A program made the position numbers and the translations under genes. 52,237 bases of DNA, taken from a virus. The stretch's first letter is position 1; each line of letters opens with the position of its first letter. The stretch covers positions 1 to 52,237 of the IMG/VR virus record IMGVR_UViG_3300025087_000090, one strand, 5' to 3'. The notes beneath the pieces were generated by a model. The model was not told the DNA's origin and did no database searches. It saw only the letters and a program-made list of their open reading frames with translations. This document shows, piece by piece, positions 1 through 52,237 of this stretch.

Positions 1-876
1 CACAGAGGTTGCAAGCGTGCTTATTTCTTCCGCCACCTCTGTGGCATCCGCAAGGTCACAGCCGACTCTCCAGGCTTTTCCTTTGGCTCGGCTTTCCATT
101 CCTCCTCCGAAGTACTCGACATGACCGGGGACATAAACCTCGCAATGGCTACCTTTTCGGATATGTTTAATTTCATAGACGACAAGGTGAGAACCCTCAA
201 TCGAGCGAGAGAGATTCTCATTGCTTATGAGAAATTCATCAAACAAAAAGGTTGGAAGTTTTCTCAAACCTCTGAAACCACCATGGAGATCGCCTTTAAT
301 GCCCCACTTACTTCAAGAATCAATTACGCTGGACGGTGTGATCGTCAATTTGAAAATGGAGATATCGGTGAATGGAAGACCACTTATTATCTCTATAATT
401 CCTCCGGAAATCCCATGCCGTATTTACAACAGTGGTGGGGACATAACTCTATCCGTGGATACGCATGGGCTCAAAAGGCTTCTCATGTGCATATCCTCGG
501 AATCGGGGTCTATCCTCAAAAGCAAGAACGGGGAGGTGATCCATATCCTGGGGTGGAGAGCTTAACCATTCCTATCCAAGAATGGGAGATTAAACAATTT
601 GCCTATGAGGCTGAGGTTATAGGTGAGGAGATAATTGCTTATGCTTCTAAGAATGGTCTCTCTATTGGCAAAGACTTCCAAGAGAATCTTGATAAGACCT
701 TTTATGACAAGCTCTGGCATGGGTTTCCTACAAATACGAGTAGGTGTTACTTCAACTTGAATAATGCCTGTCAATTCGTGGACCTGTGTACGAGGAATGT
801 TCCTAAAGGTTTGGTTCTTGGAAACTACGTGATTGATCCTTTCCTGCCGTGGCTTGAAGACAAGGAGGTAGAGTGA
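1..876 (+). CDS. PD-(D/E)XK nuclease, Cas4/RecB-like with Fe-S-type cysteines (3' part)
   Basis: This is the main body of a gene whose start lies at 52062. Joined across the circular overlap it encodes about 306 aa. The frame is open from base 1. It shows the Cas4/AddB-type signature: an N-terminal GCKRAYFF, a GRCD aspartate, GEWKT as the E-x-K element, and a C-terminal cluster of three cysteines (RCYF, NNAC, VDLC). With the N-terminal Cys these could hold a 4Fe-4S cluster. The family are DNA exonucleases or end-processing enzymes; in phages they usually sit with replication and recombination genes, as here. The next frame starts at TGATG overlapping its stop. The exact substrate is inference. 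Confidence 0.8.
   Translation, partial: HRGCKRAYFFRHLCGIRKVTADSPGFSFGSAFHSSSEVLDMTGDINLAMATFSDMFNFIDDKVRTLNRAREILIAYEKFIKQKGWKFSQTSETTMEIAFNAPLTSRINYAGRCDRQFENGDIGEWKTTYYLYNSSGNPMPYLQQWWGHNSIRGYAWAQKASHVHILGIGVYPQKQERGGDPYPGVESLTIPIQEWEIKQFAYEAEVIGEEIIAYASKNGLSIGKDFQENLDKTFYDKLWHGFPTNTSRCYFNLNNACQFVDLCTRNVPKGLVLGNYVIDPFLPWLEDKEVE
6..131. repeat. Left copy of terminal direct repeat (circular overlap)
   Basis: These 126 bases are identical to 52112-52237. The nuclease reading frame continues across the join without a shift, so this is most simply the overlap of a circular or circularly permuted assembly rather than a physical terminal repeat. Bases 1-5 do not match the sequence before the other copy. 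Bases 1-9 are complementary to 35-43, which suggests a fold-back read artefact at the contig tip. Confidence 0.9.
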
Positions 877-1619: not shown

Positions 1620-1952
1620 ATGAGCAAACGAAACCAATATAAATCTCTTAAAGACGTCCTCCACCTTGCCTACCTCCAAGCCTCTGAGGGCAAGGGCAAA
1701 GAGCGCCATGCCTCAGGTGAGCCTTTCGAGGACCAGCCCATATGCACCATAGCTCGAAAGGTAGGCATTGGGTTCTGCCTTGGTCAAGCTCTTAAGAAGA
1801 TAGAGGAGAGCCGAAGGCTCTCTCAGTATCCAGGGAGGGAAATCGGAGAGCTTCTTGGGGCAATTAATTACATCGCTGGAGCTATTATTGTGATTAATGA
1901 AAGAGCAAAGGAGCGTGCAAGTGCAAAGCCTACTCCGCCTCTCTCAAATTAA
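1620..1952 (+). CDS. Conserved phage protein, helical, possible NTP pyrophosphohydrolase-like
   Basis: A 110-aa helical protein with the conserved-looking string GKGKERH (about residues 25-31), then FEDQPI, a GxGFxLGQAxKKI helix and a C-terminal ELLGAINYIAGAI helix. Small phage proteins of this look often sit beside nucleotide and replication genes. A link to the all-alpha dATP/dGTP diphosphohydrolase or MazG-like families is only a guess, because I cannot see a full metal-binding E-x-x-E set. Strong ribosome site AGGAGG just upstream. Confidence 0.6.
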   Translation: MSKRNQYKSLKDVLHLAYLQASEGKGKERHASGEPFEDQPICTIARKVGIGFCLGQALKKIEESRRLSQYPGREIGELLGAINYIAGAIIVINERAKERASAKPTPPLSN

Positions 1953-3243
1953 AGTCGGCTTTAGGTTCAGAGAGGATCTTGGTGACCTCTCTGACCTTGC
2001 AGAGAAGATAAGGTCCACTAAAGGGTTGAAGTTTAACTTTGTAGTAGTTGAAGAGGTTGAAGAGGGTGGAGACAAAGTCTATCACCTCCTTGCCGGCGGA
2101 CGTCGGGTTAAAGTCTACGAGCTTCTTTCCACCGGACACTCAGATGTGTGGGGTTCTTATACTCCTACTCAAGAGGAGATGGACCACTACCTTTTCGTCC
2201 CATGTACTATCCTCAAAGACCTCACCCCTGAGGACAGACTCAAGGTCGAATTCATCGAGAACATGGGTCGAAAGGACTTCACTTGGCAAGAGGCTTGTAT
2301 GCTTGTGAGTGAGTTGCACAAGAGAAAGGTTGCAAACTTTGGAAACCCCTCTGGAGGTCGAGGCAAATCAGGTTGGTCCATTCGAGACACAGCAGAGTTC
2401 CTTGGTCTTTTACCCTCTCAAGTGGTTGACTACCTCAAACTTGCAGAGGGACTGACCTCATCTCCCAAACTGGCAGAGATTAAACAAAAATCCAAAGCCC
2501 TTTCCAATGTAAAACGTCAAAAGCAAGTGGACCTTGCTAACCTCTTGAATATTACAGACTATACTTTGGGCGATGTGAGAGTAGTCTGTGGCGACTCCAG
2601 TGAGGTTCTACTGGAGGTAGAGGATGAGTCTGTTGATCTCATTATAACTGACCCTCCATGGGGGATTAACTTTGAGGAGGTTACAACAGATGCTCGTACA
2701 GACGCTTATATCTCCTATGACGACAAGTTTGACCCTATGGAGAATCTTGAAATCTTAACTCTATGTTACCAAAAGCTCAAAGAGAACTCTCCCCTCTACA
2801 TGTTCTACTCAGCCATTCCAGAGAAGGTCGTAGAGGGTGTAGAGCTCCTCACCACTACCGGCTTTAAGGTGGAGAGAATTCCTCTTATCTGGTACAAAAA
2901 GCACGTCCTTTCCCATATGAGCGGAGAGACACGCCATATGATAAACTACGAATCCATTCTCTACGCCTGGAAAGGAGAACGTCCATTCCTTAACCACACC
3001 TCTCGAAACATCTTCGAGCATCAAGTGGCCTATCTCAATCGGATTCATTCTGCTGAAAAGAGTGAAGCTCTTTTGGCTGAATTGATTGAGCTTCATACGG
3101 AACAAGGAGCTATGGTCTTAGACCCATGGGGAGGTAGTTGTAAACTGGCTGATGTATGTCGTAAATTACTTCGCCGCTGTCTTGTGGTTGAAAGAGAGCC
3201 TGATTTGGTCAAGATGGCGAGCATGAGATTGGAGGGGGTGTAA
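1921..3243 (+). CDS. ParB-like domain fused to a DNA (N4/N6) methyltransferase
   Basis: The product has 440 aa. The GTG at 1921 has AAAGGAG 7 nt upstream; an in-frame ATG at 1897 has no good site. Residues about 10-120 form a ParB/Srx domain (LLAGGRR at 57-62, ENMGRKDF at 113-120). A helix-turn-helix-like stretch follows (about 152-172). The C-terminal half is an amino-methyltransferase with motif IV DPPW at 244-247 and then motif I VLDPWGG near 399-405, so the order is that of the beta class. The family transfers methyl from S-adenosylmethionine to adenine N6 or cytosine N4. No restriction partner is visible, so it is probably an orphan phage methylase protecting DNA or marking sites. The target sequence cannot be read from the protein. 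Confidence 0.85.
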   Translation: MQSLLRLSQIKVGFRFREDLGDLSDLAEKIRSTKGLKFNFVVVEEVEEGGDKVYHLLAGGRRVKVYELLSTGHSDVWGSYTPTQEEMDHYLFVPCTILKDLTPEDRLKVEFIENMGRKDFTWQEACMLVSELHKRKVANFGNPSGGRGKSGWSIRDTAEFLGLLPSQVVDYLKLAEGLTSSPKLAEIKQKSKALSNVKRQKQVDLANLLNITDYTLGDVRVVCGDSSEVLLEVEDESVDLIITDPPWGINFEEVTTDARTDAYISYDDKFDPMENLEILTLCYQKLKENSPLYMFYSAIPEKVVEGVELLTTTGFKVERIPLIWYKKHVLSHMSGETRHMINYESILYAWKGERPFLNHTSRNIFEHQVAYLNRIHSAEKSEALLAELIELHTEQGAMVLDPWGGSCKLADVCRKLLRRCLVVEREPDLVKMASMRLEGV

Positions 3244-3702: not shown

Positions 3703-3832
3703 GAGGGAAATAACTACAACATACAAAATCCATAACTGTAAAAGGCTCGTCAGCCAAAACGATTGGTTCATTGTATCTACAACCTATTGTCCATTCTGCA
3801 AGGAGATTCTTAATGCTCCGACGACAAGTTGA
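3665..3832 (+). CDS. Small CPFC protein, 55 aa
   Basis: The ATG at 3665 has GGAGAG upstream and overlaps the preceding gene. The product holds one Cys (NCKR) and a CPFC pair near the end, compatible with a small zinc site. It overlaps the start of the polymerase gene at 3813 by 20 nt, so coupling is likely. Unrecognised. Confidence 0.5.
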   Translation: MLRRQVWLIKHPEREITTTYKIHNCKRLVSQNDWFIVSTTYCPFCKEILNAPTTS

Positions 3833-5555
3833 AGGCTCAGGCCCACTTGACTCACCAGTACTCTTATTGGGGGAGGCTCCAGGCTCTACCGAAGTGGCAG
3901 GGATTCCTTCTAAGAATATCCTCCCCTCTCCATTCATAGGTTGGAGTGGTCAGTTTCTCCAAGAAATGTGTGAGAGGGCAGGCATAGACTTCTGGAACGG
4001 AATTAGACGAGACAATGTCGTCCAAGAACAGCCCTATAAAAACGACTTCTCTATCTACTACCGAGACAAAGCTCAAAGGGAGCCAACCCCTGAGCTCTTG
4101 GCTTGGTATGCTGACCTAAGGCGTCGTATTCTCCTCCAACGCCCAAAGGTTATAATTGCAGCAGGGGATCAACCTTTGTTTGCCTTGACAGGGAACAAGA
4201 GCTCTACCAAATGGCGAGGCTCAGTTGTTCCATACCAATCCCAAGACCTCAACTGTTGGATAGTGCCCATAGTCCATCCATCCTATGCTCGTCGATGTTT
4301 CAATATGACCTCCTCGAAAAGGAAGGAAGTTCGTCAGCCTTGGTTTCATATTACTGTCTTTGATTTGATCAAGGCTAAGAGGGTGTCTCAAGAGGGATGG
4401 AAGCCTTTGGAAAGGGTGGAGAAGATATTCCCATCTTACTATGAAGTTATGGAGTACCTCGACCAACTTCTCTCTATGCCCTCAGACACTTTAATCACCA
4501 CTGACGTTGAGACAATTCGACGAGAGCATATTAAATGTGTGGGCCTTACTCACTCCAAAGACTACGCCATGTGCATCCCCTTTGTAGCGAGTGGAGCAGG
4601 GAAGCCTTATTATTCCATCGTCCAAGAAGCTGAAATTTGGCTCATGCTTGAGAAGGTGTTCTCTACTCATCTACTCTGCGGCCAAACCATAGCCTTCGAC
4701 GCTGCTATGTTTTGGAGAGACATAAAAGGGTTTGAATTAGAAGAGTCTGTCCACATAGACACAGCGATCCTTCACTCTCTCTTATACCCCGAGCTCAAAC
4801 ACGATCTTGGTTTCCTCGCTTCTATCTACACCGATATGCCATACTTTAAGTACCTCGGTCGGCTCTCTGAGAGCAAGTCCAACATAGGCCAGACTTTTGA
4901 GTATAACTGCTTCGACGTCCAATCCACCCATGAGTGTGCGGAGGAGCTTATCAAAGAGGCCAAGCGAGAAGGTATGTGGGATTATTATCTCTCAAAGAGA
5001 TTGCCTCTTGCTAAATGGGCCATTCGACAGCATAGACATGGGCTAAGTATAGACGAAGGTCGAAGAGAGACCATCCTCAAGAGCCTTTGGTATGAGGAGA
5101 TCCTTCCTCTCCAAACCATGCTTGATGAGTGTCTATGTGAGGTAGGTTGGCTCGGAGCTTGTACTTTTACCAAGACCAAAGTTAATAAACTTCAAGCTCT
5201 TGGCCTTGATGTTGATGGTACTCAAGAGGGGTTGAATACAAGCTCCCCTCAGCAGGTGGTGGCTTTGCTTAGAGCTTTGGGGTATGTGGTCTCTGATTCA
5301 AGCGAGGAGACCTTAACCTCACTTGCTGAGAGTTCAGTAGTGGCAAAGGCCATCTTGCAACTAAGGTCAGGATTCTCTCTCCTCACCTCCGTTGCTAAAC
5401 CTACCGATAAAGATGGAAGGTTTAGAACCTCTATTAATCTCCATGTTACTGAAACCACTCGGTTGTCATCTACCAAATCCCACTATGGTGGAGGAGCAAA
5501 TATGCAAAATGTGACGAGAAAGGCACGGCCTTTGTTTTGTGGAGGTGTGGAATAA
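3813..5555 (+). CDS. polA: Family A DNA polymerase, N-terminal fragment: UDG-like domain + 3'-5' exonuclease + start of polymerase domain
   Basis: 580 aa; the ATG at 3813 has AAGGAGA 6 nt upstream. Residues about 10-165 resemble family 4/5 uracil-DNA glycosylase (GEAPG at 20-24, PFIGWSG at 40-46, HPS at 155-157). Residues about 225-385 are a DnaQ-type exonuclease with Exo I DVET (D231, E233), Exo II D296 and Exo III Y364-x3-D368. Then come thumb-like sequence and the polymerase entry motif TETTRLSS (546-553) with MQN (564-566). The protein stops at residue 580, just before motif A. Motifs A, B and C lie in the separate gene 5745-6521. Together they give a complete replicative polymerase, probably as a two-subunit enzyme. 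The glycosylase-like part may recognise uracil or merely hold a partner. Confidence 0.85.
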   Translation: MLRRQVEGSGPLDSPVLLLGEAPGSTEVAGIPSKNILPSPFIGWSGQFLQEMCERAGIDFWNGIRRDNVVQEQPYKNDFSIYYRDKAQREPTPELLAWYADLRRRILLQRPKVIIAAGDQPLFALTGNKSSTKWRGSVVPYQSQDLNCWIVPIVHPSYARRCFNMTSSKRKEVRQPWFHITVFDLIKAKRVSQEGWKPLERVEKIFPSYYEVMEYLDQLLSMPSDTLITTDVETIRREHIKCVGLTHSKDYAMCIPFVASGAGKPYYSIVQEAEIWLMLEKVFSTHLLCGQTIAFDAAMFWRDIKGFELEESVHIDTAILHSLLYPELKHDLGFLASIYTDMPYFKYLGRLSESKSNIGQTFEYNCFDVQSTHECAEELIKEAKREGMWDYYLSKRLPLAKWAIRQHRHGLSIDEGRRETILKSLWYEEILPLQTMLDECLCEVGWLGACTFTKTKVNKLQALGLDVDGTQEGLNTSSPQQVVALLRALGYVVSDSSEETLTSLAESSVVAKAILQLRSGFSLLTSVAKPTDKDGRFRTSINLHVTETTRLSSTKSHYGGGANMQNVTRKARPLFCGGVE

Positions 5556-5773
5556 TGTTGTCTAAAAAATATTTCATATCAGGTACGTACTTTACAAGAC
5601 AAGAGATAACTCAAGACGAATTTGTTAAAGCTGAGCGAGCTCATGGATTTTATCCAAAATATGGTCTTGGTCCTGAGGCAACAGGAGGCTTTTCATGCGG
5701 TTTGATTTGGTACTCTATTGAATACAATGATATGGAGGAGAAGGATGAAACGCAAGCTCCTAATCGAAGCTGA
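5555..5773 (+). CDS. Small protein lodged between the two polymerase fragments, 72 aa
   Basis: The ATG at 5555 overlaps the stop of the polymerase N-fragment (TAATG) and has GGAGG upstream. The frame runs 72 codons and overlaps the start of the C-fragment by 29 nt. It has no HNH, GIY-YIG, LAGLIDADG or intein splice motif that I can see. The sequence contains an aromatic, beta-like start (KKYFISGTYFTRQEI) and a Gly-rich middle. It could be the remnant of the element that split the gene, or a new gene that arose in the gap. Confidence 0.6.
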   Translation: MLSKKYFISGTYFTRQEITQDEFVKAERAHGFYPKYGLGPEATGGFSCGLIWYSIEYNDMEEKDETQAPNRS

Positions 5774-6521
5774 CCTCTCCCAAGCTGAGGCAAGAGCAGT
5801 AGCCTACTACTGTGGTGATGAAGGCATGAAAAACCTCTTCAAACAAAAGATCGACATCCATGTCGACAGAGCCTTGATGATCTTAGAGGTCGAGGAGAAA
5901 CATTATGAATATGAGGACTTTAAACAAATGTACGTTGATGGAAACAAACTTGCAAAACAATATCGACAAGGAGCTAAAGCTGTTGGTGTCCATGCTACCA
6001 ACTACGACGTCGGCCCTCGCACAGTTGTTAATTCTCTTAGACACCATGGGATCTTCCTTAGCACACGACAAGAAAAATGTCTCCGAGCTAATACACACAA
6101 CAGATTTCCTGGTATCCGATTATATCAATATGGTGTACAGCAAGCTCTCAAATCCTCTCGTACTCTCCATACCGCCAAAGGAATGAAACGCTACTTCTTT
6201 TCCAAACTTGACGACAACACCTTCCGTCGAGCCTATGCCTTCCTCCCTCAATGCACCGTGGCGGAGATAACCAATGATGCCATTGTAAAAATGGAGCCTT
6301 TGATTCGAACCTTGGATGGCTTTGTTCTCCTCCAGGTCCATGACTCTGTATTGGTTGAAGTGCCTGAGAGAAATGTCCAAGAGGCCTATGAGATCATAGT
6401 GTCCTCCATGACTCAACCCATAGATGTCTACCCCTTCTATGGAGACTCTGATGTTATGACCATACCTGTGGATGTCAAATGGGGCACTCATTGGGGGGAG
6501 CTAAGAGATTGGACAAACTAA
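5745..6521 (+). CDS. polA: Family A DNA polymerase, C-terminal fragment: palm and fingers
   Basis: 258 aa; the ATG at 5745 has GGAGGAGAAGG just upstream. It carries motif A (EADLSQAEAR, catalytic D10), motif B (R74, K78, then HATNYDVG) and motif C (QVHDS, catalytic D200). These are the dNTP-binding and metal-binding elements missing from 3813-5555. In intact family A enzymes motif A follows the QN motif of the N-fragment by about 20-25 residues, so the break falls exactly in that linker. The start is real because the ribosome site is strong and codons upstream belong to another frame's gene. The protein is likely to work only as a complex with the N-fragment. Confidence 0.85.
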   Translation: MKRKLLIEADLSQAEARAVAYYCGDEGMKNLFKQKIDIHVDRALMILEVEEKHYEYEDFKQMYVDGNKLAKQYRQGAKAVGVHATNYDVGPRTVVNSLRHHGIFLSTRQEKCLRANTHNRFPGIRLYQYGVQQALKSSRTLHTAKGMKRYFFSKLDDNTFRRAYAFLPQCTVAEITNDAIVKMEPLIRTLDGFVLLQVHDSVLVEVPERNVQEAYEIIVSSMTQPIDVYPFYGDSDVMTIPVDVKWGTHWGELRDWTN

Positions 6522-6694
6522 AAACCCACTCTCACCTTTGGAATAGACAAACAACCTATCCAAACATCAAGTCGCTTTGTGGGCTTTTGTTTAGAGACGT
6601 TGTTGCAGGAACACCATGGGGTTCTACCATCACAGGAGTCAAACAAGATATCACTTGTCCCATTTGTCTTTTGAGGCTTAAGTGGAGGAGATAA
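6509..6694 (+). CDS. Small Cys/His protein, 61 aa
   Basis: I favour the TTG at 6509 because GGGGGGAG lies about 8 nt upstream; an ATG at 6479 would overlap the polymerase by 43 nt. The pattern HSH, SLCG, ITCPICL suggests a zinc-binding site. Similar short proteins with a final TCPxCL are common in phage early regions. Function unknown. Confidence 0.55.
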   Translation: MDKLKTHSHLWNRQTTYPNIKSLCGLLFRDVVAGTPWGSTITGVKQDITCPICLLRLKWRR

Positions 6695-6695
6695 A

Positions 6696-6905
6696 ATGCA
6701 ATCACATAAAATTAACATAAGCACCCATACAAAAACAGAAACTGGATATTGCAGACGTTGCAAATCTTACAATTGTCGAATGATTATGTACATACCAAAG
6801 TATGATAGAATATGGACTTGGGAAGAGAGGTATAAAAGAATTATGATAGGTGCTACTTATAATCCAAACTACGATGAGAACTCTGAATGGAACCCTGGCT
6901 CCTAA
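6696..6905 (+). CDS. Small zinc-binding-like protein, 69 aa
   Basis: It contains CRRC followed by NC in the first third and an aromatic, charged C-terminal half. AGTGGAGGAG precedes the ATG. The stop overlaps the next ATG (TAATG). Not recognised. Confidence 0.55.
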   Translation: MQSHKINISTHTKTETGYCRRCKSYNCRMIMYIPKYDRIWTWEERYKRIMIGATYNPNYDENSEWNPGS

Positions 6906-7201
6906 TGCGGATGCTTGAGGACCACTCATGTCCAAGCTATAAACACTGTTTCAACAAAGCTGCCCATGACCCTATCAACGACAAATACGTACCCTGCTAT
7001 GAGTGCATGGGAGGTAAACTCATGGATCAAACATTCCACTGCTCCAACTGCAAAACAGTTTGGAAGCCTGACAATAACGACTGGACTCTTTCCAAGCTCA
7101 TCCAATGCCCTTTTTGCAACAAACGCTACCTCGTCGCTGTCTTTATAAAAGAAGGAAAATTGGCAGGAGAAATCCTTCATGCAACAGCGACTACTAAGTA
7201 A
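6905..7201 (+). CDS. Multi-CxxC zinc-ribbon protein, 98 aa
   Basis: It holds CYEC, CSNC and CPFC pairs plus two further cysteines (SCPS, HCFN), enough for two zinc sites. The later pairs, CSNC and CPFC, sit about 20-25 residues apart as in rubredoxin-like or TFIIS-like ribbons. The start at 6905 overlaps the previous stop; the end overlaps the DUF3987 gene by 23 nt. Possibly nucleic-acid or protein binding; specific role unknown. Confidence 0.65.
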   Translation: MRMLEDHSCPSYKHCFNKAAHDPINDKYVPCYECMGGKLMDQTFHCSNCKTVWKPDNNDWTLSKLIQCPFCNKRYLVAVFIKEGKLAGEILHATATTK

Positions 7202-52062: not shown

Positions 52063-52237
52063 TGACAAATCCCATTCTCACATTTGACCACACCCAACGT
52101 AGCTCCTGGCAAGGTTGCAAGCGTGCTTATTTCTTCCGCCACCTCTGTGGCATCCGCAAGGTCACAGCCGACTCTCCAGGCTTTTCCTTTGGCTCGGCTT
52201 TCCATTCCTCCTCCGAAGTACTCGACATGACCGGGGA
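52062..52237 (+). CDS. PD-(D/E)XK nuclease, Cas4/RecB-like (5' part)
   Basis: Start of the gene that continues at 1-876. ATG 52062 overlaps the preceding stop (TAATG) with AGGAGG upstream. The peptide MTNPILTFDHTQRSSWQGC continues into the KRAYFF motif. The window ends inside codon 59. See the entry at 1-876 for the domain description. Confidence 0.8.
   Translation, partial: MTNPILTFDHTQRSSWQGCKRAYFFRHLCGIRKVTADSPGFSFGSAFHSSSEVLDMTG
52112..52237. repeat. Right copy of terminal direct repeat (circular overlap)
   Basis: Identical to 6-131 over 126 bases; marks closure of the circular assembly. Genome length without it is about 52,106 bp. Confidence 0.9.

What the first reader, a model, noticed from the sequence alone, without database searches (positions are those of the whole stretch)
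3813..6521. Family A DNA polymerase split into two genes with a small gene between, N-part fused to a UDG-like domain
The N-fragment has exonuclease motifs and TETTRLSS/MQN but stops just before motif A. The C-fragment starts with its own strong ribosome site 7 residues before motif A and carries motifs A, B and C with both catalytic Asp. A 72-aa gene overlaps both ends. Split polymerases are known in T4-like phages (family B) where a homing endonuclease entered; here the intervening gene has no endonuclease motif. All catalytic residues are kept, so a two-subunit enzyme is likely. The glycosylase-like domain at the front is a further oddity.
Basis: partly seen in the sequence, partly recalled or inferred. 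Interest (0 to 1): 0.75.

Follow-up and report, generated by a model that had tools for sequence, protein, structure and literature searches.

The report
Phage DNA polymerase split in two
This phage makes its own DNA-copying enzyme from two separate genes with a swappable small gene wedged between them; the cut lies just before the active site, where related phages have split the same enzyme many times, so the gene is real and probably works as a two-part enzyme.

Summary
The split is real. N part 3813-5555 (580 aa: uracil-glycosylase-like, 3'-5' exonuclease, thumb, TTRLSS/MQN), small gene 5555-5773 (72 aa), C part 5745-6521 (258 aa: motifs A, B, C). The cut falls in a 4-residue turn just before the motif-A strand. 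It is not an assembly error: an independent contig (L173, 60-64% identical) has the same cut, the same TAATG junction and the same C-gene start, but a different gene in the gap (DUF1937). A sister phage (L089, 49%) has one intact gene. Both fragments are under purifying selection and keep every catalytic residue. In a sample of 118 related polymerases, 36 are split in this region, with at least 7-9 label changes on trees. Gaps hold HNH endonucleases (4 loci), ThyX, dUTPase, DnaQ-type exonucleases, orphan genes or nothing. Rfam finds no group I intron. Most likely this is a two-subunit PolA made by gene fission, with the gap used as a replaceable cargo slot. The UDG-PolA fusion is normal for this family. 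Published precedent: OM43 phage MEP401 has a family A polymerase cut at the same turn by a 77-aa gene. Function, and a homing-endonuclease origin in this lineage, are inferred.

The parts
3813..5555 (+). PolA N-subunit, 580 aa: UDG-like domain (aa 8-169), 3'-5' exonuclease (D231, E233, D296, Y364, D368), thumb/palm start with TTRLSS (R550) and MQN (Q565, N566), ending ARPLFCGGVE
   Evidence: Pfam; PHROG phrog_17 3.9e-35; motif table; AlphaFold2 model pLDDT 87, fold matches to Klenow and Tth UDG 1ui0
3834..4319 (+). family-4/UdgX-like UDG domain; keeps GE(A)PG Glu21 and HPS His155; no Fe-S cysteines seen at its start
   Evidence: PF03167 1.2e-10; phmmer to TM0511 1.3e-6; Foldseek 1ui0 TM 0.71
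5553..5557 (+). TAATG stop/start overlap at the fission point (identical in L173)
5541..5545 (+). GGAGG Shine-Dalgarno-like site of the small gene
   Evidence: direct reading
5555..5773 (+). 72-aa cargo gene of unknown function; related to Streptomyces phage Annadreamy gp188; lower GC3 (0.29) than the polymerase genes (0.47-0.48)
   Evidence: no Pfam/PHROG endonuclease match
5734..5744 (+). GGAGGAGAAGG Shine-Dalgarno-like site of the C gene
   Evidence: direct reading
5745..6521 (+). PolA C-subunit, 258 aa, starting at the motif-A strand: motif A D10, motif B R74/K78/Y87 (one extra residue), motif C H199/D200
   Evidence: DNA_pol_A 3.5e-23
1897..3243 (+). ParB-like/DNA methyltransferase fusion upstream (conserved neighbour, also in L173 and L089)
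   Evidence: synteny
6887..7201 (+). small Cys-rich protein downstream, conserved in L173
7179..8381 (+). phrog_14296 primase-like gene downstream (conserved neighbour)

Best explanation
The phage's family A replicative polymerase has undergone gene fission. SHOWN: an ancestral single-chain UDG-exo-PolA (as in sister L089) was cut in the turn between the segment after the QN motif and the motif-A strand. The cut arose before the window and L173 lineages separated. Each half has its own start and ribosome site and stays under purifying selection with all catalytic residues. The gap is a slot whose gene differs between the two phages. INFERRED: the two polypeptides are made from one mRNA by overlapping, coupled translation and assemble non-covalently into one proofreading polymerase. 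The N subunit brings the UDG-like domain, exonuclease, thumb and part of the palm; the C subunit brings the catalytic palm and fingers. The intervening 72-aa protein is cargo, not part of catalysis. INFERRED and less sure (about 0.4 for this lineage): the original invader was a free-standing homing endonuclease, later lost and replaced; such genes still sit in this gap in four relatives.
For: Frames, starts and motifs. L173 shares the same split, junction and C start with a different insert, DUF1937. L089 is intact with the same gene order. Tree: window and L173 are sisters (98), then L089 intact (100). Codon-position divergence window/L173 is 0.33/0.22/0.66 in N and 0.36/0.26/0.60 in C, i.e. 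purifying selection on both halves. Catalytic residues are kept in the split forms to the same degree as in intact ones. Many split relatives with varied inserts. MEP401 is cut at the same turn (PMC10580990). T4-like gp43A/B halves co-purify and are active (PMC2988022). In the L089 model the cut lies in a turn (588-591) between a helix and the motif-A strand.
Against: No biochemistry exists. The window alone carries one extra residue in the motif B helix (K to Y spacing 9; 8 in the other 115 polymerases without an intein there), which could weaken activity. The insert here is not an endonuclease, and no endonuclease remnant was recognised. Purifying selection was measured between two split forms only and at near-saturating synonymous divergence. 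The structure jobs modelled single chains, not the complex.
Confidence: 0.8

Rival explanations
1. Rival on origin only: plain gene insertion. A small non-mobile gene (or recombination of a gene cassette) landed in the turn directly, with no homing endonuclease ever involved in this lineage.
For: Both known inserts of this lineage are non-endonuclease genes (72-aa protein, DUF1937). The MEP401 insert is an orphan. Several relatives are split with no insert at all.
Against: HNH endonucleases are present in the gap of four relatives, and homing endonucleases are the documented cause of comparable splits in T4-like phages.
Confidence: 0.45
2. One chain is restored after all: group I intron, intein, trans-splicing split intein or translational bypass joins the halves.
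For: Introns and inteins are common in phage polymerase genes, and an in-frame intein lies in motif B of relatives L063-L067. MEP401's authors suggested an intron.
Against: Rfam finds nothing in the window and no intron in 12 split relatives. The insert is about 190 nt with its own ORF and ribosome site, the halves are in different frames, there are no intein end motifs, and L173's insert is a coding DUF1937 gene.
Confidence: 0.05
3. Sequencing/assembly error or decaying pseudogene.
For: Metagenomic contig, no reads available; one-residue insertion in motif B.
Against: L173, from another metagenome, has the same split. Third-position divergence dominates, all catalytic residues are kept, and the record holds no other family A polymerase.
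Confidence: 0.03
4. The 72-aa protein is a third, functional subunit or assembly factor of the split polymerase rather than cargo.
For: Overlapping, probably coupled genes in the same operon.
Against: L173 has an unrelated protein in the same slot, many split relatives have no or unrelated inserts, and a relative of the 72-aa protein occurs in a Streptomyces phage with no polymerase gene annotated beside it.
Confidence: 0.07

Closest known systems
Split family A DNA polymerase of OM43 phages MEP401/MEP402 (Zobellviridae; PMC10580990)
   Same: Family A, cut in the same turn (N ends ..IKTLFLSRYGE, C starts MILNADAKALEW), small 77-aa unknown gene in between
   Different: No UDG domain (N part starts at exo motif I); very distant sequence; insert unrelated; other gene order
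[quoted passage not shown]
   Same: UDG-exo-PolA split in two with a gene (184 aa) in between; methyltransferase gene upstream as here
   Different: Cut about 12 residues upstream, right after LQN; insert is of another family (phrog_8380); annotated in the record but not discussed as a split in the one paper found that names the phage
Split family B polymerase gp43A/gp43B of T4-like Aeromonas phages 25 and 44RR (Petrov et al. 2010, via PMC2988022)
   Same: Polymerase gene broken into two ORFs; halves co-purify and are active; homing endonuclease in the gap of phage 25
   Different: Family B, unrelated enzyme; gap holds a seg endonuclease or untranslated spacer
UDG-fused DNA polymerase I of jumbo phage PaBG (and SPO1-type polymerases)
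   Same: Family-4-like UDG domain fused to PolA
   Different: Single chain

Membership tests
Family A DNA polymerase (PF00476) | motifs A, B, C with two catalytic Asp | tested here: met
   DNA_pol_A 3.5e-23 on C; D10, R74/K78/Y87, H199/D200 conserved; motif B spacing +1 residue
Family A DNA polymerase (PF00476) | single polypeptide carrying thumb, palm and fingers | tested here: not met
   two genes, different frames
Proofreading 3'-5' exonuclease domain (DEDDy) | D-x-E, D, Y-x3-D | tested here: met
   D231, E233, D296, Y364, D368; conserved across the 117 aligned (D296 is E in three); Pfam match itself sub-threshold
UDG superfamily family 4 / UdgX | PF03167 fold, GE-x-PG Glu and H-P-S His | tested here: met
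   PF03167 1.2e-10 over cut-off; Foldseek 1ui0 TM 0.71; E21 and H155 present
UDG superfamily family 4 / UdgX | 4Fe-4S cysteines | tested here: not met
   not seen at the start of P0001 (C-x2-C missing), though cysteines are present in relative MW202554 (direct reading)
UDG superfamily family 4 / UdgX | uracil excision activity | not testable with these tools
   needs enzyme assay
Split phage polymerase by homing endonuclease (T4 gp43A/B type) | two ORFs together covering one polymerase, all motifs present | tested here: met
Split phage polymerase by homing endonuclease (T4 gp43A/B type) | endonuclease gene in the gap | tested here: not met
   72-aa ORF has no endonuclease match; HNH present in gaps of relatives L043, L051, L062, L132
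Split phage polymerase by homing endonuclease (T4 gp43A/B type) | halves associate and polymerise | not testable with these tools
   needs co-expression
Group I intron-interrupted polymerase (SPO1 type) | intron RNA structure in the gap | tested here: not met
   no Rfam match, E-value search of 5000-6600 and gathering search
Intein | in-frame insertion with splice motifs | tested here: not met
   gap has its own start and stop, halves are in different frames, no intein end motifs (direct reading)

The most novel reading that the evidence does not exclude
The segment just before motif A of phage family A polymerases is a recurrent, tolerated and possibly selected fission site. Once split, the gap becomes a co-translated cargo slot filled with homing endonucleases, nucleotide-metabolism genes (ThyX, dUTPase, DUF1937) or extra exonucleases. 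Splitting may also protect against re-invasion by homing endonucleases or allow control of subunit supply.
Probability: 0.35. Interest if true: 0.65.

Novelty: new variant of a known kind. Interest (0 to 1): 0.5.

Why it matters
A replicative polymerase cut beside its catalytic strand many times over, with halves kept under selection, would be a natural series for studying how an enzyme core tolerates fission and how gene splits become cargo sites. It also gives a testable two-part, UDG-fused proofreading polymerase. It warns annotators that family A polymerase genes in phage contigs are often two genes, which affects polA-based surveys of viral diversity.

Tried and rejected
Searching viral contigs with the C fragment alone gave nothing; alignments were needed. 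Bacterial and archaeal genomes: no relative. The viral-contig hit for the 72-aa ORF (L169) is a chance match inside a dehydrogenase-like gene, and upstream hits in L015, L164, L020 and others look like translations of a wrong frame. Rfam intron search: nothing. Terminase search in the L173 and L089 records: no match, so their packaging genes differ or are missing. Phylogenetic placement of MEP401 and L003 is unreliable (long branches). No endonuclease remnant was recognised in the window's insert.

Full report
1. What is in the window. Searches confirm three overlapping genes. N runs 3813-5555 (580 aa), a small ORF 5555-5773 (72 aa), C 5745-6521 (258 aa). The N stop and the small ORF's start share TAATG; the small ORF and C overlap by 29 nt. 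GGAGG and GGAGGAGAAGG lie upstream of the small gene and of C. Pfam places UDG and the start of DNA_pol_A in N, and the rest of DNA_pol_A in C; PHROG phrog_17 (DNA polymerase) covers both. The two DNA_pol_A matches in the record are these two halves. Exact 126-bp repeats at both ends of the record suggest a complete, circularised genome of about 52.1 kb.

2. It is a split of one gene, and it is inherited. The closest relative by the first scans, L089 (49% identical), has one intact 842-aa gene in the same gene order. There the sequence reads ..LRPIFRARPGYMLIEADLS..; the window reads ..ARPLFCGGVE* and MKRKLLIEADLS... A later scan found L173 (IMGVR_UViG_3300049484_000143), 64% identical in N and 60% in C. 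It has the same cut, the same TAATG junction and a C gene starting MKRKTLLEFDLSQAE, but its gap holds a different gene, a DUF1937 protein (7.9e-20). So the cut is not a sequencing error, predates the separation of these two phages, and the gene in the gap is replaceable. Codon-position divergence between window and L173 (N 0.33/0.22/0.66; C 0.36/0.26/0.60) shows both halves are coding and under purifying selection.

3. The small gene. It matches no Pfam or PHROG family. A 33-aa core (EITQDEFVKAERAHGFYPKYG..ATGGFSC) is 58% identical to gp188 of Streptomyces phage Annadreamy: E=6e-10 pairwise but only 0.1 in the database search, so this is suggestive rather than proven. Its GC3 (0.29) is well below that of the polymerase genes (0.47-0.48), which fits late acquisition. 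A shuffled 189-nt gap stays open in this frame in 0.65% of trials.

4. Domains. The predicted N model (pLDDT 87) matches Klenow-type polymerases and, in its front domain, family 4 UDG (1ui0, TM 0.71) and UdgX. The front domain keeps the motif Glu and the HPS His but lacks the Fe-S cysteines seen in relative MW202554. UDG-PolA fusion is the standard form in this family: all relatives checked by Pfam carry it, the N profile matches from the UDG end onward in nearly all others, and it is reported for PaBG. In the L089 model (pLDDT 91) the cut maps to the turn 588-591, between a helix and the motif-A strand; the model matches Pol theta, Klenow and Bacillus Pol I structures. The last 40 residues of N alone have lower confidence (63-73) than the equivalent part of L089, weakly consistent with needing C to fold; the two alignments differ.

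5. How common it is. Two alignment-based scans gave 160 loci. With the phage records, and after removing near-copies, 118 polymerases remained: 79 intact, 36 split between the QN motif and motif A, 3 split in the exonuclease-thumb region. The split label needs 11 changes on the first tree (at least 9 forced by starred branches) and 12 (at least 7 forced) on a second tree of 70 with a mixture model, where window and L173 are sisters with L089 outside them. So splits arose, or were reversed, repeatedly. The sample was taken by similarity, so 36/118 is not a frequency in nature. Most splits lie right after LQN, about 12 residues upstream of the window's; the window, L173 and MEP401 share the turn just before motif A. 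The exonuclease and polymerase catalytic acids are as conserved in split as in intact forms.

6. What sits in the gap elsewhere: HNH endonucleases (L043, L062: phrog_374; L051, L132: HNH_3), ThyX (L122), dUTPase (L135), DnaQ-type exonuclease (L101, L142), Mom-like (L101, weak), DUF7768 (L137), HTH proteins, orphans, or nothing (L039, L055, L083, L111, L120, L121, L131, L145). In L043 the endonuclease begins with the C gene's own first residues (MPMPNI), as if it had entered an already split gene like that of close relative L060. Rfam finds no group I intron in the window or in 12 split loci.

7. Interpretation. The simplest account is gene fission with both halves kept as subunits of one enzyme. 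The T4-like gp43A/B case shows such halves can co-purify and work (PMC2988022). The origin by a homing endonuclease is plausible because such genes occupy the same gap in relatives, but in this lineage it is inferred, and plain insertion is about as likely. One caution: the window alone has an extra residue in the motif B helix; L173 has normal spacing.

8. Prior knowledge. MEP401/402 were described with a family A polymerase in two ORFs around a small unknown ORF, and most related metagenomic genomes share it (PMC10580990). I checked that the cut is at the same turn. VS-ABTNL-3 has a similar annotated arrangement; the one paper in the held library that names it does not mention the split. I found no paper on split UDG-PolA or on recurrent fission at this site in the held library; subscription literature was not searchable.

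Noticed in passing
window 6-131 and 52112-52237: Exact 126-bp direct repeat at the two ends: the record is probably a complete circularised or terminally redundant genome.
   Followed up: partly
L063, L064, L066, L067 (about L063:4081-7356): In-frame intein-like insertion of roughly 290 aa in the motif B helix of an intact UDG-PolA (VHG|C...VTGN|SNYGG).
   Followed up: partly
L043:7837-8322 and L060:7764-7859: HNH endonuclease ORF begins with the first residues of the polymerase C fragment, suggesting it entered an already split gene.
   Followed up: partly
L112:4435-5934: 499-aa ORF resembling a di-haem cytochrome peroxidase (by eye) lies between the two polymerase halves; possibly host-derived or a chimaeric contig.
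   Followed up: no
window 5964-6005 (C residues 74-87): One extra codon in the motif B helix (K to Y spacing 9, against 8 in all other aligned polymerases without an intein there).
   Followed up: partly
L003, L006, L139, L140, L157: A different split site in the same family, between exonuclease and thumb; Caulobacter phage Kuura has two small genes in that gap.
   Followed up: partly
L111:3413-5932: About 250 extra residues between exonuclease and thumb in a polymerase that is also split before motif A.
   Followed up: no
window 1897-3243: ParB-like domain fused to a DNA methyltransferase, conserved just upstream of polA across this phage group.
   Followed up: no
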